Below, one piece after another: positions 6,793-59,072 of a DNA stretch of 64,000 bases. The stretch comes from Bifidobacterium asteroides (lineage in GTDB: Bacteria > Actinomycetota > Actinomycetes > Actinomycetales > Bifidobacteriaceae). Made by a program: the position numbers and the translations under genes. The stretch covers positions 1,798,001-1,862,000 of the forward strand of contig NZ_CP048272.1 of assembly GCF_019469425.1 (NCBI RefSeq). The letters run 5' to 3'. Each line of letters opens with the position of its first letter. Positions within the stretch are counted from its first letter, which is position 1. The notes under the pieces are model-generated. The model saw only the letters and a list, made by a program, of their open reading frames with translations. It was not told the DNA's origin and did no database searches.

Positions 6793-8244
6793 TCAGGACT
6801 TGGCTGTCGGACGACGCCGGGCCAATATAGCCTCCACGCCGATGGACAGGGAGTCCTCGCTGCGATCGGGCGCCTCGACCTGGGCCTGCATCTCCCGCTT
6901 GTGGAAGTCGTCGGGTCGGCCATCGGCCTTCTTATGAGCCTTCTTCTGACCTGGCTGCTTCTTTTCGGGAGGACGGGCCACGGAGACCTGACGGGTGGAC
7001 TTGATCTCCAGGCTGTGAGGAGCCTCGTCTTCGCTGTTCTTGCCGTCCTTGCCTGATCCCTCGTCACGGGCCGATCCCAAGGAGAAGGAGATCAGATCCT
7101 GTCCAGCCGCCGTGCCGAAGGCATCCAAGGCCGGAGAAGGGCTGATGCGCTCGAGCTCATTGGTGGCGTCGTCCTGGGCCTTAGCCAAAGACGACGAAGA
7201 TGGACGCTTTTTGCCAGCAGACGCAGAGGCCGATCCGGACTTGTCTGTATGGGCAATGGCGGATTGAGCAGGCGTCGACTGCGGGGAAGCCGAGTGGATT
7301 GCAGGCTTGGATGCCGAGGACTTGTCCACTGATGATTTAGGCGCTGCGGGCTTGGAGGCAGTCTTTTGGGCCTTTGAAGACTTGGTGGTTGCCGGTTTGG
7401 AAGCCGTCGGCCCAGAAGCTGCTTGTTTGGCCGGGGTCCGTTCAGAGGCCTTCTCGGCGACGGATGGCCTGTTCGACGTATGCCCGGTCTTGGCAGCGGC
7501 CTTCTCGGTCGACGTGAGGGACCCGGCCGAACCCTTGGCCTTGCTGCTGTCGGCAGCCGGCTTGACAGGCTTGGCAGCATTGTGCCGTCTGGCCTTGAGG
7601 GCTGCCTGTTGATCAGCCTTAGCCTGGGTCAACGTCCGACGAATCTCATCCTGGTCAAGTACATCCGTAGCAGTTTCCGTGCGACCCTCATTCTTGGTCT
7701 GCACGGGCTTGCTGGCGGTCTTGCTCTTAGTCAGACTGGCCACCTGCTGACGACGCTGCCGGGCACGCCGCTGGGCTAAATTTCGCTCCCAGGCACGAGC
7801 CTGGGCTGAAGCATGCGCGCCGGCGGCCAACACCACTATCACCAACGCCAGAGGAATCAAAGTGAACCATGGGCTGTAGCCCAAGGAGAAAGAGAGCCCA
7901 GCCACCAGCAGGGTGACAGCCAAGAGGACAAGGACCAGGATGCGACGACGGCGTATGGCCGCGCGGCGCAACTGTCTGATCTGCTTGATGCGCTGGGCCT
8001 GACTGCGCCGGTTGCCATCCTGCTGCCCTTGCTGCATGACCAACCCTTTCACCGTCCTCGACTGCCTGTCGCAGAACCTCATGCCGTCTTCCCGCCCCAC
8101 CATGTGCAGGGAGGTGGAAAGCCTGTCCTGGCGATGCTCCGAGGCCCGCTTCATACCCTTGACGGTGCGAAACGGCAGCCAACCCAGCACCAGAATCACC
8201 GCAATCACCAAAACCACGATGCTGCTGAGTGATTCATAAACCAT
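6793..8244 (-). CDS. SepX/GlpR-family divisome membrane protein
   Basis: The 483-residue protein has an N-terminal membrane segment (about residues 7-25), a short conserved stretch ending RLSTSLHMV (41-49), a basic region, and a membrane hairpin (about 102-120 and 126-146) flanked by arginine-rich segments. Residues from about 170 to 430 are low-complexity, rich in Ala, Lys, Ser, Thr and Pro. This architecture, and the neighbours RimJ-like GNAT, 5-FTHF cyclo-ligase, FmdB, SAF protein and MscL, match the actinobacterial SepX (Streptomyces) / GlpR (Corynebacterium) family, which links to FtsZ-ring factors. The MoeA-like Glp partner is not next to it here. Assignment is from architecture plus synteny. 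Confidence 0.7.
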   Translation of the reverse strand: MVYESLSSIVVLVIAVILVLGWLPFRTVKGMKRASEHRQDRLSTSLHMVGREDGMRFCDRQSRTVKGLVMQQGQQDGNRRSQAQRIKQIRQLRRAAIRRRRILVLVLLAVTLLVAGLSFSLGYSPWFTLIPLALVIVVLAAGAHASAQARAWERNLAQRRARQRRQQVASLTKSKTASKPVQTKNEGRTETATDVLDQDEIRRTLTQAKADQQAALKARRHNAAKPVKPAADSSKAKGSAGSLTSTEKAAAKTGHTSNRPSVAEKASERTPAKQAASGPTASKPATTKSSKAQKTASKPAAPKSSVDKSSASKPAIHSASPQSTPAQSAIAHTDKSGSASASAGKKRPSSSSLAKAQDDATNELERISPSPALDAFGTAAGQDLISFSLGSARDEGSGKDGKNSEDEAPHSLEIKSTRQVSVARPPEKKQPGQKKAHKKADGRPDDFHKREMQAQVEAPDRSEDSLSIGVEAILARRRPTAKS

Positions 8245-48135: not shown

Positions 48136-48405
48136 TTAGTGGCGCAGTCCAAGACGCTCCACCAAGGAACGGTAGCGGTTGATATCCACCTTCTTAAGGT
48201 AGTCCAGCAACCGGCGACGATGGCCGACCATGAGCAGGAGGCCGCGGCGCGAATGATGGTCGTGCTGGTGCTCCTTGAGGTGCTCAGTCAGGTCGGAGAT
48301 GCGCTTGCTCAGCAAGGCCACCTGGACCTCGGGGGAACCCGTATCGCCCTCGTGCGTCGCGTATTCCTTGACGATTGCCTGCTTCTGCTCAGTCGTAAGA
48401 GCCAC
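48136..48405 (-). CDS. rpsO: 30S ribosomal protein S15
   Basis: S15 is an early-assembling protein that binds the 16S rRNA central domain. The protein is 89 residues from GTG 48405 ([17 protein letters not shown]), preceded by [22 protein letters not shown] and [21 protein letters not shown] are family-typical. It is upstream of pnp, the usual order. Confidence 0.97.
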
Positions 48406-48493
48406 GGCTCCTCCTCTGTTTCTTTCCGTTACGCGGTGCACCGGCCCAATGCCGAAGCGCTCTGGTTCCGCGGGCGAAACACGCCAAACAACT

Positions 48494-48522
48494 ATTATAC
48501 ACATTTTGCGGACCAAGCAAAC
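48494..48522 (-). promoter_or_regulatory. rpsO promoter
   Basis: A consensus -10 TATAAT reads on the minus strand at 48494-48499, with a weak -35 (TTTGCT) about 16 bases upstream at 48516-48521. It lies about 90 bp upstream of the rpsO start. Confidence 0.6.
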
Positions 48523-48665
48523 AGTGACGGAATCAGCAAAATGGAAGAAGTCGGTACTGCATGAATACACATGTGCAACTCCGCCAATTTCCCCGCTCGA
48601 CCATGACGAATCAACACAATCGGTTCCTTTCCCCAACTATGGCACCGCTGCCTTGAACGTGGTTA

Positions 48666-48694
48666 TTGCTTACACCGTAGCGAAGATGTTGTAT
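48666..48694 (+). promoter_or_regulatory. Possible promoter of the LXG-like island
   Basis: TTGCTT (48666-48671), 17 bases, TTGTAT (48689-48694). Both hexamers are weak, but no better candidate exists in the roughly 400-bp gap between divergent rpsO and the DUF4176 gene. Confidence 0.35.
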
Positions 48695-48807
48695 TGTGTT
48701 ACATGAGACGACCGTGATGTACTGCGTAGTACCGCCATAGGTTGTTAGAGAAGTTGAAAGAATGTGACTTCATCCATCCATCAAAATCCATCAAAGAGGA
48801 GCACCTA

Positions 48808-49137
48808 ATGAAACAATCCGATCAGAACTCCATCAAATCAGAAGATACCATTCTTCCTTTGGGATCCGTGGTGAGGACCAAAAGAGACCCGGGTACCCTG
48901 CTGGTTATCATCGCCCGCGCTCCGTTGACAGTCATGAATGGAACAACGGGTTACTTTGATTATGGTGCCGTACAATTTCCGTATGGCATGACCGATCCGG
49001 CCAAGACCATTTTCTTCAACCGTCCAGACGTGACGGAAATAGTGTTCATGGGATACATCAACGCCGAGGAACAATCCTATGAACGAACATTTGATGAAGT
49101 CACCAAATCAACCGACTACCCCCACCTTCATCTCTGA
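48808..49137 (+). CDS. DUF4176 protein (Lap2-like LXG-toxin targeting factor)
   Basis: This 109-residue protein starts at ATG 48808, with GAGGAG upstream. From residue 17 it reads LPLGSVVRTKRDPGTLLVII, then GYFDYGAVQFPYGM, FFNRPDVTEIVFMGYINAEEQ. That is the pattern of DUF4176, a small alpha/beta family encoded in type VII secretion loci. In streptococci a DUF4176 protein (Lap2) binds the N-terminus of LXG toxins and is needed for their export. Here it is directly upstream of a second small protein and an LXG-like protein. Confidence 0.72.
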   Translation: MKQSDQNSIKSEDTILPLGSVVRTKRDPGTLLVIIARAPLTVMNGTTGYFDYGAVQFPYGMTDPAKTIFFNRPDVTEIVFMGYINAEEQSYERTFDEVTKSTDYPHLHL

Positions 49138-49193
49138 TTTGGTTACCGGCCGCATAGGACATACTTGATAAAAGGGAGAGACGGGAGAAGACC

Positions 49194-49493
49194 ATGGCGG
49201 ACTTTTCCGTGGATTACGGTCAGCTTGGCGACATGAGCAGAACCTTGAACCAAGCCGACAAAAATTGGGAGTACGAAGTAAACAACATTAACGTCGATAG
49301 CGTTCAGGGTGAAGACGGATTAGGGGACGACTCAGTAGCCGACAGCACGAATCGGGTCAATGACAACCTAAAACAGCGTATGTTGAACCTTCAGCAATCT
49401 GTTCACGTTCTTAATCAGTTCATTGAATCGGTAACCATGCAGACAAGCAATGTCGATGACAAGCTGAGCGTTGAAGTCAAAAAGCGCAAATAA
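49194..49493 (+). CDS. Small helical protein (Lap1/WXG100-like partner)
   Basis: This 99-residue, mostly helical protein starts MADFSVDYGQLGDMSRTL and has no transmembrane segment and no clear WXG motif. Its size, helix-turn-helix pattern and position between DUF4176 and the LXG-like gene match DUF3130/SACOL2603-type Lap1 proteins, which pair with LXG N-termini. Direct sequence similarity is weak. AAAGGGAGAGA sequence precedes the start. Function is inferred from context. Confidence 0.55.
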   Translation: MADFSVDYGQLGDMSRTLNQADKNWEYEVNNINVDSVQGEDGLGDDSVADSTNRVNDNLKQRMLNLQQSVHVLNQFIESVTMQTSNVDDKLSVEVKKRK

Positions 49494-49554
49494 AAAAATC
49501 ACAACTTTTGATATTTGCATTGAACGGGATGACACTACTTAAGGATACGACATC

Positions 49555-50817
49555 ATGGGCGCTTCAGATTTGGATTGGTCGGCTCTAGACCTATCAAAAA
49601 ACCCTGTACCAGGAGGAAAGAGCACAATCGACGCACTAGCCTCGCAGTTTTCCGAGAACGGTAAACGTTGCCAGGAAGTGAGTAACTCCATAACCAGCGC
49701 TTGCGGAAAGGCACCTGATTTCAAAGGCGATTCAGCAAAACAGCTCCAACAGTCCCTTTCTCAAGTGGCACAGTTTGCCGGACGCCTTTCAGAGGTCTAC
49801 GAGAACATCGACCAAGCATTAAGAAGCTGGGGGTCTGCAGTCGACACGAGCCAAGATACCGCATACAGAGATTGCCGAAAGGCAATGAACCTTCGCGACT
49901 CAACCGCGAAGAATCGGAAGAAAATCGACCAGGCGAAGCAGTCACTGAAAAGAACCAGCGATAATCTGGAGAGGGTCAGGCAAACCAATGGGGACAGCAT
50001 GTCGCGGGAGACCAATCGTCTGCTTGGTATCATTGATTCGACAAACGAGAGCATAACTCGTTACCAAGGGCAAATTGCCGACGACAATGCCGAAATCAAT
50101 CGGTTGAAGCTTGAAGTCAGCCAGGCCAGGGAACAATACAAGGACGCTGCCAGGAAAACCACAAACGACCTTGACGGATGCGTTGATGAAGCAACCGCCA
50201 AGGCCATGCAGCTGAGTACATTGAACCACTCTTTCACGGTCGGCAGTGGTCTCTCAGCCGGTTTTGAAGCACTGAGCGGAATAGCTGAACTCATGAAAGC
50301 TGATCCAGCCCTTATTGAGGGGCTGAAGACCGCAGGACTCATTGGAGAAGGATTATCAGGGAATTGGTTTGCTCCTATTGTCAGCGGGCTCATTGAGGGC
50401 GGTGATCTAGTTGCGTCAACTTCCACGACAGCTGGAGATGTTTTTATAGTTGCAGCCAAAGCTGCAACTAAAATTGTGGGCAACGCTGTAGCGATAAGCG
50501 GTTTTGGCAGCTTGGTTGGTGGAGTGGCTGAGGGTTTCGACACTTACTATGGACGGCGCGAAGCCTATGGGGAGCAAGCCGCGATTCAAGATGCTCTGGT
50601 CCATGGAGTAATCACCACATTGGGAGGCGTAAACGGAGCAGCTGTTGGCGCTATAGTAGGCTCAATTATCCCCGGACCCGGCACAGTAGCTGGTGCGATA
50701 GTTGGATTAATAGGCGGCGTTGCACTGCCAGCAATGATTAACGGCTTTTATGACAATACTGTCAAGCGCGGTCAAGGTGATGACTTATCGGACCATATTT
50801 GGAATAACGTTTGGTAA
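49555..50817 (+). CDS. LXG-like protein with glycine-zipper C-terminus, candidate T7SSb toxin
   Basis: This 420-residue protein has no signal peptide. Residues 1-215 are almost all helical, with coiled-coil stretches (residues about 110-215) and an LxG-like N-terminal bundle (LDWSALDLSKNP, then SQFSENGKRCQEVSNSI). Residues 225-400 are hydrophobic and rich in Gly and Ala; residues 351-395 (GGVNGAAVGAIVGSI, GTVAGAIVGLIGG) form a glycine zipper as in membrane-inserting toxins. No enzymatic motif is seen. The layout resembles LXG toxins such as TelE. Gene composition is more A+T-rich than the chromosome. It is followed by a large membrane protein. Toxicity is inferred. Confidence 0.6.
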   Translation: MGASDLDWSALDLSKNPVPGGKSTIDALASQFSENGKRCQEVSNSITSACGKAPDFKGDSAKQLQQSLSQVAQFAGRLSEVYENIDQALRSWGSAVDTSQDTAYRDCRKAMNLRDSTAKNRKKIDQAKQSLKRTSDNLERVRQTNGDSMSRETNRLLGIIDSTNESITRYQGQIADDNAEINRLKLEVSQAREQYKDAARKTTNDLDGCVDEATAKAMQLSTLNHSFTVGSGLSAGFEALSGIAELMKADPALIEGLKTAGLIGEGLSGNWFAPIVSGLIEGGDLVASTSTTAGDVFIVAAKAATKIVGNAVAISGFGSLVGGVAEGFDTYYGRREAYGEQAAIQDALVHGVITTLGGVNGAAVGAIVGSIIPGPGTVAGAIVGLIGGVALPAMINGFYDNTVKRGQGDDLSDHIWNNVW

Positions 50818-50863
50818 ATGACGGAAAGCGGTTTTTAGTATATAGGCTTACGGAGAGGTTTCA

Positions 50864-52180
50864 ATGTTATATCTGTTGGTCGGTTTGTTGCTCTTCGGGG
50901 CGGTGCTGGTCTGGTTGCTTGTGGTGGCGTCGTTCAATGCGTGGAGGTCGAGGCGGCTGATGGACCGTGTCCTGGCCCCCTACCTCCTGGCGCGGGGCCT
51001 GTGCCTGCAGACCTTCCAGGGGCACGTGTGGCGGCGGCGCGGCAGGATCGGCCGGCCCCGGCCAGGACAGGTCCTGCCCCTGGGATCGCTGGTTGTCCTG
51101 GCCGACGGGCCCGCCACCGTATCCGGGGCCTGCAGGGGCGCCGGATGGTTCGACGGGCTGGGAGAGGACGGGCTTGTGGTCCGCCTGGTCGGCCAATACG
51201 TGCAGCCACCCGAACAGGCCACCGGCCCATGGTACGCGGGCAGGATCTGCTCCGTGGGCGGCGCCGCCTGCAGCCCCGGCGTGGTCCCCGGCGGCGACAT
51301 CCCCCTGCCCGAGGTCGGCGTCGGCCACACTCCCGACCCTGACCTGGTCACCTTCACCCAGGACCAGGTCAGCCTCCTGGCCTGGAAGGGACCAGACAAC
51401 CCCGTCACCAGGCTCCTGCGCGCCCGCCGGGTCCGCGCCCTCGCCCACGACCACCAGTGGGAGGACCCGGTCCGCCGCCGGACACGGTCGACACCGCACT
51501 GGCAGGCCAGCCGCCCCGCATGGTGGCGCTACGAAGCCATCGGCTACCTGCCCGACCGGTTTACCCGCGTCTACTGGGACCGCGTCTGCAACCAGCCCGT
51601 CAAGGCCCCCATGCGCTACCGGACCCCGGAAGCCGGGAAATACAACAGACGACACTACACTGCCTCCGCATACACCACCGCGCTAATCGTCACCATCCTC
51701 CTGGTCGCCTTCAGAATAGCTCGCGCATGGCATCGCTCCAGACCGCACCGTCCCCTCCGTGGCGGCGAGGCCCTCCTGGGCATGCCCTCACTGACCTCGG
51801 AGATCGTCTGCTGCGTCCTGGGCCTCGCCCTCGGCATCGGCACATGGATCTGGGCCACCCACCGGCAATTCCCGCCACACCTCATGACCCCAGCCAGCAG
51901 CCGCGAACTCCAAACCGCCCTCGACAACTTCTACATCGTCATGCGGTACATCACCGGGACCACCATCCCCTACACCATCCACGCCCTCGCCTACACTGCA
52001 CTCGTCCTGATACTGGCCTACCCTTTCATGGACGACTTCTTCACCCTACCTGAATGGATCAAGACCTACCTGACCTGGCCCATCCTTATTCTCGCAATAA
52101 TCGGCATGGGCATATCCACCATAGACATCTTCTGCGGTTGGTGGATAGCCAACCGTCTGGATCGGGAATTAGCAGAATAG
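50864..52180 (+). CDS. Multi-spanning membrane protein, possible immunity protein
   Basis: This 438-residue protein has one N-terminal membrane segment, a cytoplasmic or outer domain of about 230 residues, then four or five membrane segments (from about residue 268). It starts at ATG 50864 after GGAGAGG. No family was recognised. Its third codon positions are strongly G+C rich, unlike the LXG-like gene 46 bp upstream, so the two may have different origins. As the last gene next to a candidate membrane toxin it could give immunity, or it could be unrelated. It has no counterpart in the window. Confidence 0.6.
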   Translation: MLYLLVGLLLFGAVLVWLLVVASFNAWRSRRLMDRVLAPYLLARGLCLQTFQGHVWRRRGRIGRPRPGQVLPLGSLVVLADGPATVSGACRGAGWFDGLGEDGLVVRLVGQYVQPPEQATGPWYAGRICSVGGAACSPGVVPGGDIPLPEVGVGHTPDPDLVTFTQDQVSLLAWKGPDNPVTRLLRARRVRALAHDHQWEDPVRRRTRSTPHWQASRPAWWRYEAIGYLPDRFTRVYWDRVCNQPVKAPMRYRTPEAGKYNRRHYTASAYTTALIVTILLVAFRIARAWHRSRPHRPLRGGEALLGMPSLTSEIVCCVLGLALGIGTWIWATHRQFPPHLMTPASSRELQTALDNFYIVMRYITGTTIPYTIHALAYTALVLILAYPFMDDFFTLPEWIKTYLTWPILILAIIGMGISTIDIFCGWWIANRLDRELAE

Positions 52181-52360: not shown

Positions 52361-53077
52361 TCAAACTGCGGTGATGAGGCCACCGAAGAGGACAATGGCT
52401 ATGGCAATCAGCTCAATGATGAAGAACATGGACAGGGCCGACCAGCTGTGGGTCAATGCGTTCCAGGGGGAATCCTTCTTGACACAGACCAGGATGGCCA
52501 CAAAGAGGATGGCGAAGACCGCCACTCCCAGTCCGGCCGCGATGATGCCCAAGTTGGCCGCGTTAGCCAGGATGGCCTGATGCTGGTAGACCACGAAGGT
52601 GCTGTACCAGAAATTCATCTTGAGCAGGCAGAGGCCGGCGATCAGCTGCTCTGCGGCTAGTCCCAGCACGAAGACCACCCGCCAGAACCAGGAGGACGAC
52701 TCAATGATGGACATGGCGATACCCATAAAGGTCAGCACGGTCACCGTCCAGGCAATCAGGGCTATGCCTCGCGGATCCAGGACCGAGGCATAGTGGAGTA
52801 CGCCCTGGGTATGGTTGATGGCCAGCGAGCGACCGTATCCGTAAGGAATGACAATGGCCACGAGGACTGCCAGCGCGAAGACGACCCAGCGGACCGGACG
52901 GGCACGGCGCTGCTCGATCTCAGCCAGTGAGTATTCCGAATCTGGAATAGTGGCCTCAGGATGGGCTGAAACCCTGTTCACAGCAGTCGCTTCATCCGTG
53001 TGCGTCGGCACGGCTACGGAACCAGCTGCATCGCCTCTGGCGGATTCCGTACCATTCGTATCGTCGAATTGTTCCAT
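52361..53077 (-). CDS. Membrane protein, unknown function
   Basis: This 238-residue protein starts at ATG 53077 (MEQFDDTNGTES), after a GGAGG some 12 bases upstream. About 70 hydrophilic residues precede five or so membrane segments (VVFALAVLVAIVIPYGYG, IALIAWTVTVLTFMGIAMSI, VVFVLGLAAEQLIAGLCLL and later). No family was recognised. It is convergent with the preceding membrane-protein gene. Confidence 0.7.
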   Translation of the reverse strand: MEQFDDTNGTESARGDAAGSVAVPTHTDEATAVNRVSAHPEATIPDSEYSLAEIEQRRARPVRWVVFALAVLVAIVIPYGYGRSLAINHTQGVLHYASVLDPRGIALIAWTVTVLTFMGIAMSIIESSSWFWRVVFVLGLAAEQLIAGLCLLKMNFWYSTFVVYQHQAILANAANLGIIAAGLGVAVFAILFVAILVCVKKDSPWNALTHSWSALSMFFIIELIAIAIVLFGGLITAV

Positions 53078-54226
53078 CGGCGACCACACCTCCAAGTCCG
53101 CCACTCATGAACACATCGCCTACAGCTTATACCGGGCAGCGCACTCGTGCCCAGAACCGCAAAAGTCATCGCATAGACCTGATGCAGCTGACCATCCACT
53201 TCAGTTGCCATATTCCCCTGCCGCTCGTTTTTCATCACTAGACGACTAAGACACACATGCACATGCATCGAAAAGTCAAATCCTGTTCAGAAAGCCCCAA
53301 AACTAAGAACAGACAAACCATCGACCACTGAGGTTTGGGAACGGATCCACGAATTATCAATTTGCCATGGATGTCCGTTCTCATTCCTTCTTTATTCTTG
53401 TTTACAATCGCATCATCCTGTTCTTGCTCCCTGCTGTTAATCTGCCTGCCTCCACAAAATTTTGCCAGCAAACACAGCAGTCGCATCTTCCTTCAGGGCG
53501 AGTGCTCTGCCTATATCGCGCGCTTCACCTGGATCCCAGCTTGAATGATCTGTTAGCAGAACACATCGATATCCAAAGATCCTGCCTACTCGATCAGGAG
53601 CATCAGTTTTTCTGTGGTCGGATCCCCGTCAATGGTATTCATATAATCATCTAAAATTATGAGCGCTCGGGAGGCTCTCCCCCTTAGCGTATTGTGCATA
53701 CCTGCAGCACGTAAGGTTCTGGCCCAGCTAATCGTTTATGCAGTATTTTTAGCCCTATTATGATTACAAAGCATGAATCTCTTCGATTATTCGAATTTCT
53801 GATATTGACCTGTACAGGCGATACAACACAAACCGGGAAGGCTGGACATTAATTCCGGTCTACTGAATATGCCGTGCTGCTGCAAGGATGCCAGCTTGTC
53901 GGAAGAAAGAGGTTGCAGTCAACTGTGTATTTCCGCCAGCAAGTTAAGCTCAATGGATGCGAAGGCTCTCAAACATTTGAAGGCGCTACTCGAGAGCCCG
54001 ATGCTAAAAACAAGTCATCCGAACTCACTGCTCTCCACCTTAAAGAACCCAGCTAGAAGTTCACGCCTTCACATATTTGAGCTATGGCCACGAACAGCAT
54101 ATAAAGGACAAGACCGAAGGATCTTGGTCTGCGTTCCGAACCACAGCGAAACGCAGACAACGAGTCACCACGTTCGGATGCGGGAGGCATAGCCTAGCAG
54201 GCAAGAACACTGAAAGGAGGACATGG
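53078..54226. other. Gene-poor, probably decayed region
   Basis: About 1.15 kb without a credible gene. Short frames on both strands lack ribosome-binding sites and family features. Composition is more A+T rich than the flanking chromosome. The region separates the membrane-protein gene from the CRISPR trailer end. Confidence 0.6.

Positions 54227-54896: not shown

Positions 54897-59072
<4,176 letters not shown>

What the first reader, a model, noticed from the sequence alone, without database searches (positions are those of the whole stretch)
48666..52180. LXG-like toxin module with DUF4176 and Lap1-like partners in a bifidobacterial chromosome
Seen: DUF4176-pattern protein, small helical protein, 420-residue coiled-coil protein ending in a glycine zipper, then a membrane protein, all on one strand with tight spacing and A+T-richer composition in the first three. 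Known: LXG toxins of Firmicutes are exported by the T7SSb with Lap1 (DUF3130) and Lap2 (DUF4176) targeting factors, and glycine-zipper LXG toxins insert in membranes. Inference: this is a horizontally acquired contact-dependent toxin unit, possibly undescribed in this genus.
Basis: partly seen in the sequence, partly recalled or inferred. Interest (0 to 1): 0.8.

Follow-up and report, generated by a model that had tools for sequence, protein, structure and literature searches.

The report
Bee-gut Bifidobacterium type VII effector module
A four-gene unit in a bee-gut Bifidobacterium looks like a weapon cassette (chaperone, targeting partner, membrane-attacking toxin and probable immunity protein) served by a type VII secretion machine elsewhere in the same chromosome, which would extend a mechanism known mainly from Firmicutes to a gut actinobacterium.

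Summary
On one strand, with gaps of 56, 61 and 46 nt, lie DUF4176 (Pfam E 8e-18), a 99-aa WXG-like protein, a 420-aa coiled-coil/glycine-zipper protein and a 438-aa membrane protein. About 1 Mb away the genome carries a type VII core (EssC/EccC-type ATPase, WXG100, kinase, FHA proteins) with a paralogue of the 420-aa protein (BLASTP 1e-9). The effector N-terminus is not Pfam LXG; its family matches T7SS_signal/WXG100, with F56-x-G58 on the WxG site of EsxA. Two other Bifidobacteriaceae genera keep the four-gene order. Of 189 Bifidobacteriaceae genomes, the six with the intact module all have the ATPase, against 19 of 183 others. In the window's clade four of nine modules are intact, all with the core. 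Four others share a deletion of partner and effector start but keep DUF4176 (altered in one) and the membrane gene; one is frameshifted. One genome has an orphan toxin C-terminus with a second membrane gene: polymorphic toxin-immunity behaviour. DUF4176 is the Ltc chaperone, not Lap2. Structure prediction never ran; secretion, toxicity and immunity are inferred. Verdict: a real, new actinobacterial variant of LXG-like effector modules.

The parts
48808..49137 (+). DUF4176 / Ltc-type chaperone gene (open frame extends to a TTG at 48742)
   Evidence: PF13780 E 7.9e-18; PDB 9dcs E 7e-15; start chosen by the Shine-Dalgarno-like GAGGAG
49194..49493 (+). 99-aa WXG-like targeting partner; aspartate D88 falls on the acid of the FxxxD motif of the core-locus relative
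   Evidence: hhalign to core-locus WXG-like proteins 93% probability, E 3e-7, D88 aligned to the D and T84 to the F; alignment A4; missing together with the effector start in four genomes
49555..50817 (+). 420-aa effector: WXG/T7SS_signal-type N-terminal domain, coiled coil, glycine-zipper C-terminus
   Evidence: paralogue beside EssC, BLASTP 1e-9; full-length homologues in G063 (6e-33) and G170 (3e-32)
49570..49614 (+). signature LDWS(x)6NPVPG of the effector N-terminus (residues 6-20)
   Evidence: W8 and P17-V18-P19-G20 invariant in 10 of 10; W8 and G20 in 18 of 18
49720..49728 (+). F56-K-G58, the WxG-equivalent loop
   Evidence: F and G of the family profile aligned to W-E-G of S. aureus EsxA, E 2e-8
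50623..50715 (+). glycine-zipper segment (about residues 357-387)
   Evidence: GxxxGxxxG-type pattern and hydrophobic segments; PF13488 weak
50746..50814 (+). effector C-terminus with the conserved tail YDxxVxRGxGD
   Evidence: these residues invariant in 7 of 7 C-terminal domains from three genera
50864..52180 (+). 438-aa polytopic membrane protein, candidate immunity protein
   Evidence: C-terminal half related to membrane genes beside the G063/G170 effectors (hhalign 96%, 1.5e-9; BLASTP 5e-4 for G170); intact in 8 of 9 loci; duplicated together with the orphan toxin end in G009

Best explanation
This is a type VII secretion effector module. Proposed working: the DUF4176 (Ltc-type) chaperone holds the 420-aa effector in a secretion-competent form in the cytoplasm. 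The 99-aa WXG-like protein pairs with the effector's helical N-terminal domain, so that the effector's F-x-G loop and the partner's C-terminal aspartate together form the bipartite export signal read by the EssC/EccC-type ATPase encoded elsewhere on the chromosome. After export, the C-terminal glycine-zipper domain inserts in the membrane of a neighbouring bacterium and permeabilises it. The 438-aa membrane protein protects the producer and its kin. Shown here: the gene set, homologies, the core in the genome, the paralogue at the core, co-occurrence, the orphan cassette and retention of the membrane gene after effector loss. Inferred: binding, export, toxicity, target and immunity.
For: DUF4176 E 8e-18. 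EssC/EccC-type ATPase 1.6e-179 in the same genome, with WXG100, kinase, FHA proteins and a paralogous effector followed by a duplicated polytopic membrane gene. Family profile matches EsxA structures with F-x-G on WxG. Same gene order DUF4176, small protein, effector, membrane protein in G063 (about 7 kb from its EssC) and G170. Of 189 Bifidobacteriaceae genomes 20 have DUF4176 and 25 the ATPase, 14 both (Fisher 2.3e-10). The six genomes with an intact four-gene module all have the ATPase (3e-6); any intact effector-family gene: 11 of 11 (2.2e-11), or 11 of 17 counting every match (1.7e-7). Effector N-terminus 87% and C-terminus 50-57% identical, in 60-aa bins, to three orthologues: polymorphic pattern. 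Orphan C-terminus plus second membrane gene in G009, the two membrane copies differing with dN/dS 1.17. Membrane gene open in four effector-less genomes, dN/dS 0.22-0.53 among them. Published parallels: Ltc chaperones (passage), glycine-zipper LXG toxin TelE with N-terminally truncated orphan copies (passages).
Against: No experiment. The window's own N-terminal domain scores only E 0.034 for WXG100 and PF21725 is not among its 25 listed families; membership comes through relatives. The hydrophobic partner of D88 is T, not F/Y, in the 99-aa protein, and its profile matches true WXG100 proteins only at 20%. Glycine-zipper Pfam scores are below cut-off. DUF4176 stays open in three effector-less genomes and is altered in a fourth, which a pure chaperone would not need. 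The core is about 1 Mb off, so its service of this module is inferred. Co-occurrence counts are not corrected for shared ancestry, and the 11-of-11 count includes core-locus paralogues that lie next to EssC anyway. Six of the 20 DUF4176 genomes lack the ATPase. In group B Streptococcus the membrane gene after an LXG toxin did not protect (passage of PMC11481500).
Confidence: 0.72

Rival explanations
1. The effector is a type VII substrate that works on the producer's own envelope or in adhesion, not a toxin; the membrane protein is its receptor or anchor.
For: No catalytic toxin domain is recognised; type VII systems of actinobacteria also secrete non-toxic substrates (recalled).
Against: Polymorphic C-terminus, orphan C-terminus with a second membrane gene in G009, and retention of the membrane gene where the effector is lost fit toxin-immunity better.
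Confidence: 0.13
2. It is a toxin module as in the best explanation, but the 438-aa protein is not the immunity factor: it helps delivery, or protection comes from another gene. (Overlaps with the best explanation in all other steps.)
For: In group B Streptococcus the membrane gene next to BltA gave no protection, and in S. gallolyticus the immunity gene of TelE is the third gene downstream (passages of PMC11481500 and PMC10434224). Its long hydrophilic middle is nearly invariant, unusual for a specificity factor.
Against: It is the only other gene of the unit, is kept after effector loss, and its membrane-spanning C-terminal end varies as the toxin C-terminus does.
Confidence: 0.25
3. An abortive-infection or toxin-antitoxin unit acting inside the cell, perhaps with the nearby CRISPR array.
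For: An array with 69 exact copies of a 28-base repeat core starts 2.7 kb downstream.
Against: The export-type N-terminus, the WXG-like partner and the tie to the EssC-type ATPase have no role in such a unit. The other eight syntenic loci were not examined for CRISPR.
Confidence: 0.04
4. A decaying relic without present function.
For: Five of nine modules in the clade are damaged.
Against: The window copy has four intact frames with ribosome-binding-like sites and its genome keeps the core.
Confidence: 0.05

Closest known systems
LXG effector modules of T7SSb (Streptococcus, Staphylococcus; Lap1/Lap2 partners, Ltc = DUF4176 chaperone)
   Same: WXG-superfamily N-terminus, small helical partner, DUF4176 protein, polymorphic C-terminus, downstream membrane protein, type VII ATPase
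   Different: N-terminus not Pfam LXG; a single small partner, which does not match DUF3130 (or any other Pfam family convincingly); actinobacterial host; core without EssB/EsaA families among the proteins scanned; DUF4176 encoded first
TelE of Streptococcus gallolyticus (glycine-zipper LXG toxin)
   Same: several hundred aa, mostly helical, C-terminal glycine zipper, N-terminally truncated orphan copies in some isolates (passages)
   Different: no sequence comparison was made here; its immunity protein is a 151-aa DUF5085 protein, not a 438-aa polytopic one; conserved YDxxVxRGxGD tail here
PF21725 T7SS_signal proteins (actinobacterial distribution recalled)
   Same: relatives of the effector match it: 14 of 18 at E<=1, best 2.7e-10
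   Different: the window protein itself is not among the listed matches; a link with DUF4176 was not seen in the papers searched
Predicted type VII loci of Bifidobacterium (B. longum, B. choerinum, B. dentium)
   Same: presence of a WXG100/type VII locus in the genus is in print (passages of PMC5758520 and PMC4965825)
   Different: the passages seen describe no effector, chaperone or immunity module

Membership tests
DUF4176 / Ltc chaperone | match to PF13780 over cut-off | tested here: met
   64.7 bits against 25; PDB 9dcs E 7e-15
DUF4176 / Ltc chaperone | encoded beside a type VII effector | tested here: met
   three genera with the same order; G021 has DUF4176 right after EssC with a Pfam-LXG protein two genes on
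DUF4176 / Ltc chaperone | binds and stabilises the effector, stays in the cytoplasm | not testable with these tools
   needs biochemistry
LXG toxins (PF04740) | match of the N-terminus to PF04740 | tested here: not met
   no PF04740 match in the genome at E<=1e-3; 3 of 18 family members match at E<=1, best 2e-5
WXG100 superfamily / PF21725 T7SS_signal N-terminus | profile similarity and WxG-equivalent loop | tested here: met
   family profile to EsxA 2e-8 with F-x-G on W-E-G; 14 of 18 members match PF21725 and 10 of 18 WXG100 at E<=1. The window member alone is weak (WXG100 E 0.034)
Lap1 (DUF3130) | match to DUF3130 | tested here: not met
   the only Pfam match at E<=10 for the 99-aa protein is MIS13 at 0.026
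Lap1-like export arm | C-terminal FxxxD / hydrophobic-xxxD | tested here: inconclusive
   aspartate conserved in 6 of 6, hydrophobic residue replaced by T or S; 6 of 9 core-type relatives have it (five F, one V)
T7SSb secretion core | EssC over the TIGR03928 cut-off | tested here: not met
   597 bits against 778
Type VII secretion core (general) | EssC/EccC-type ATPase beside WXG100 | tested here: met
Polymorphic toxin system | conserved N-terminus, variable C-terminus, orphan C-terminal cassettes with partner genes | tested here: met
   one orphan cassette, in G009. That the partner gene gives immunity was not testable
Glycine-zipper toxin | glycine-zipper motif and membrane permeabilisation | tested here: inconclusive
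   motif weak in Pfam, conserved in alignment; activity not testable

The most novel reading that the evidence does not exclude
A bifidobacterial contact-dependent killing system in which the Ltc/DUF4176 chaperone, known from Firmicutes, serves a non-LXG actinobacterial effector family (LDWS...PVPG start, glycine zipper, YDxxVxRGxGD tail) through a non-T7SSb type VII machine, with a new polytopic immunity family that is a fusion of two proteins encoded separately in relatives; lineages that lose the toxin keep the immunity gene.
Probability: 0.5. Interest if true: 0.72.

Novelty: new variant of a known kind. Interest (0 to 1): 0.6.

Why it matters
Type VII loci have been noted in bifidobacteria with an unknown role (passages). 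This gives one of them a concrete candidate substrate, chaperone and immunity gene, and a natural experiment: nine genomes with intact, truncated or frameshifted modules at one site. If true, the simple bee gut would be a place to test type VII antagonism between closely related commensal actinobacteria, and DUF4176 chaperones would not be tied to Pfam-LXG domains or to Firmicutes machines.

Tried and rejected
Rejected: Pfam LXG membership; DUF3130 for the 99-aa protein; DUF4176 as Lap2; recent plasmid transfer (effector: no plasmid match; DUF4176: nine plasmid records, seven Staphylococcus and two Enterococcus, all under 60% identity). BLASTP of the 99-aa protein against its core-locus relative found nothing (E 1.1); profile comparison did, but against the WXG100 proteins it gave only 20%. 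BLASTP of the 438-aa protein against the G063 membrane protein found nothing (0.28); profiles did. Promoter-like and terminator-like sites were at the shuffled level (2 found, 2.1 expected; 5 found, 4.8 expected). A search of 396 Actinomycetota genomes, a sample of the phylum, for the C-terminal domain found the window's own genome and three weak matches; one (L123) is in a frame that also matches the N-terminal profile (4.8e-6), the other two do not. NCBIfam gave nothing useful for the C-terminus. Phmmer of the single proteins against PDB sequences gave only coiled-coil-type or chance matches for the effector and the 99-aa protein, and profiles of the small proteins gave nothing decisive.

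Structure prediction was never run, so no predicted fold is claimed, and no fold search was made.

Dropped rows: (17 genomes with a match) six were left out of the 11-of-11 count: G025 (broken gene) and G062, G110, G113, G114, G160 (E 8.6e-5 to 8.3e-4, partial matches in frames over 1100 aa); the count with all 17 is given beside it. G003 is among the 11 through its core-locus paralogue only. G025's broken copies were left out of the alignments. The empty-site check covered 7 of the 18 clade genomes without the module; six are empty, and in G008 the fetched stretch lacks pnp and rpsO.

Mended on checking: distance to the core (1.24 Mb in contig coordinates, 0.99 Mb the other way if the chromosome is circular); a stricter co-occurrence count for the four-gene module alone; 6 of 9 instead of 'most' for the export motif; the list caps of the paper searches.
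Full report
What is there. Between rpsO (frame 48136-48636, minus) and a 247-aa membrane protein gene (52361-53104, minus) lie four plus-strand genes. The first three are A+T-rich (GC 0.46-0.51) and the fourth is G+C-rich (0.664; window 0.597). The first is a DUF4176 protein (PF13780 E 7.9e-18; PDB 9dcs E 7e-15). Its likely start is ATG 48808. The window is part of a single-contig genome of 2.23 Mb. Named relatives of the effector found in one scan are in Bifidobacterium choladohabitans, B. mellis and Bifidobacterium sp. B4142. In B4142 polynucleotide phosphorylase is 99.6% and the 247-aa protein 99.2% identical, but the effector is 93% in its first 41 residues, 83% over 40-348 and 58% over 345-420, and the 438-aa protein 85-87%. 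The module thus changes faster than its neighbours, although the B4142 copy is frameshifted. That these are bee-gut species is recalled.

The secretion machine. The genome has an EssC/EccC-type ATPase at 602.5-606.3 kb (TIGR03928 E 1.6e-179, 597 bits, below the T7SSb cut-off of 778), 1.24 Mb from the module in contig coordinates and 0.99 Mb the other way if the chromosome is circular. Next to it are a WXG100 protein, a protein kinase, a 1758-aa protein with Ig-like domains, an FHA protein, a 109-aa WXG-like protein, a 206-aa protein and a 491-aa protein. The 491-aa protein is a paralogue of the window's effector (22% over 223 residues, E 1e-9; both begin LDWS...PVPG). It is followed by a 284-aa polytopic protein that is present a second time nearby (300-nt exact repeat), and by a 436-aa FHA protein. 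No EssB, EsaA or EccB/D/E family appeared among the nine locus proteins scanned or the two further ones; the genome as a whole was not searched for them. So this is a type VII core that does not look like canonical T7SSb. The label T7SSd for bifidobacteria is recalled; a search for it together with bifidobacteri found no paper.

The effector's family. The window's effector alone has no convincing Pfam match. An 18-member alignment of N-terminal domains shows W8 and G20 invariant and P19, W92 and Q100 nearly so. Scanned one by one at E<=1, 14 of 18 match PF21725 T7SS_signal (best 2.7e-10), 10 of 18 WXG100 and 3 of 18 LXG. Against PDB sequences the profile finds S. aureus EsxA at 2e-8, with F-x-G placed on the W-E-G loop. 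Many other PDB matches are coiled coils and mean little. The C-terminal 121 aa hold a glycine zipper and a tail YDxxVxRGxGD that is invariant in 7 of 7 aligned C-termini from three genera.

The partner. The 99-aa protein matches no family convincingly. A profile of it and its relatives matches the WXG-like proteins of the core loci (hhalign 93%, 3e-7) but the WXG100 proteins only weakly (20%). D88 is conserved in 6 of 6. Six of nine core-type relatives have F-x-x-x-D (five) or V-x-x-x-D (one) there, as in the published FxxxD and hydrophobic-xxxD export motifs (passages); the window's protein has T instead of the hydrophobic residue.

The membrane protein. The 438-aa protein has a hydrophobic segment at its N-terminus, a long conserved hydrophilic middle, and several hydrophobic segments in its C-terminal part. 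Its C-terminal half is related to membrane proteins beside the G063 and G170 effectors (hhalign 96%, 1.5e-9; BLASTP 5e-4 for G170). Its N-terminal 46 residues weakly resemble a second, separate small membrane protein in G063 (0.003), and in G170 a small frame with a hydrophobic start follows the membrane gene (not compared). This suggests a fusion of two partner genes, which is inference.

Comparative evidence. In the 27-genome clade (the tool's genus) the module occurs at the same rpsO site in nine genomes. The effector is intact in four (G000, G009, G011, G019). In G025 it lies in pieces in different frames, and so do the 99-aa and 438-aa genes; sequencing error is not excluded. In G003, G010, G018 and G020 the stretch between DUF4176 and the membrane gene is 538-544 bp against 1726 bp in the window, holds only remnants of the effector, and is 94.5-96.5% identical between them, which points to one shared deletion of the partner and effector start. 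The four intact genomes all have the ATPase; of the five damaged only G003 does (Fisher 0.048). The 438-aa gene is open in eight of nine; among the four effector-less genomes its dN/dS is 0.22-0.53. DUF4176 is open in three of these four and altered in its first half in G003. Six of seven neighbours checked have rpsO next to the 247-aa gene without the module; eleven further genomes were not checked. G009 carries a second unit of an effector C-terminus (from about residue 279) and another 438-aa gene; its two membrane genes differ with dN/dS 1.17 over few changes.

Outside the clade, G063 and G170 keep the order DUF4176, small protein, effector, membrane protein; in G063 about 7 kb from the EssC gene. 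Over 189 Bifidobacteriaceae genomes DUF4176 is in 20, the ATPase (E<=1e-100) in 25, both in 14 (p 2.3e-10). The six genomes with an intact four-gene module (four in the clade, G063, G170) all have the ATPase, against 19 of the other 183 (p 3e-6). Effector-family genes of any kind judged intact are in 11, all with the ATPase (p 2.2e-11), but this includes core-locus paralogues that lie next to it; with all 17 matching genomes it is 11 of 17 (p 1.7e-7). These counts ignore shared ancestry. Another clade member, G021, has DUF4176 directly after an EssC that passes the T7SSb cut-off, followed two genes on by a protein that does match Pfam LXG (3.7e-11) and then a YwqH-like protein, so two kinds of type VII effector module occur in this clade.

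How it most likely works. DUF4176 proteins are now called Ltc chaperones and bind a disordered region of some LXG toxins (passage of PMC13355648; the two primary papers it cites were not held). By analogy the window's DUF4176 protein keeps the effector export-competent, the 99-aa protein completes the export signal, the core exports the pair, the glycine-zipper end damages membranes as TelE does (abstract and passages of PMC10434224), and the 438-aa protein gives immunity. Every step after the homologies is inference.

Against this reading. The window's partner lacks the hydrophobic residue of the export motif, glycine-zipper scores are below cut-off, DUF4176 persists in genomes without an effector, six of 20 DUF4176 genomes lack the ATPase, and in group B Streptococcus the analogous membrane gene did not protect (passage). 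Acquisition by recent transfer is not supported: fixed site, no plasmid match for the effector, and low effector GC also in relatives.

Novelty. Type VII loci in bifidobacteria are in print (passages). In the held library ten papers mention DUF4176 and ten hold both bifidobacteri and LXG; by titles and abstract starts none describes such a module in bifidobacteria. Other searches listed none either: 25 of 56 papers listed; 4 of 4; 19 of 19; 25 of 301; none found; 15 of 19. Only passages of seven papers were seen; no paper was read whole. Most subscription papers are not held.

Noticed in passing
window 54897-59072: CRISPR array with 69 exact copies of a 28-base repeat core, about 61 bases apart; downstream minus-strand genes from 59279 look like cas2, cas1 and further type I-E genes (names by eye, recalled).
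   Followed up: partly
L011:3295-4149 and 7380-8216: The core locus carries two similar polytopic membrane genes with a 300-nt exact repeat, one right after the paralogous effector: a second candidate immunity gene, recently duplicated.
   Followed up: partly
L055:2993-11477 (G021): Another species of the clade has an EssC over the T7SSb cut-off followed by DUF4176, a 307-aa protein, a 634-aa protein with a true Pfam LXG domain and a YwqH-like protein.
   Followed up: partly
L102:1523-3052 (G009): A further effector-family gene (509 aa) with a 212-aa neighbour on a 3.2-kb contig, a third such gene in that genome.
   Followed up: no
L010:19261-19881: A 206-aa protein without family match lies between partner and effector at the core; relatives (phmmer 7e-17 to 2.5e-11) lie in effector loci of other genera (L104, L105, L107, L109, L111). 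Perhaps a chaperone that takes the place of DUF4176.
   Followed up: partly
L106, L107 (G063): A dense type VII island with three effector-family genes (one short) and several tandem membrane genes.
   Followed up: partly
window 50941-51700: The middle of the 438-aa gene is very G+C-rich (to 0.74) and nearly invariant between species, unlike its ends; reason unknown.
   Followed up: no
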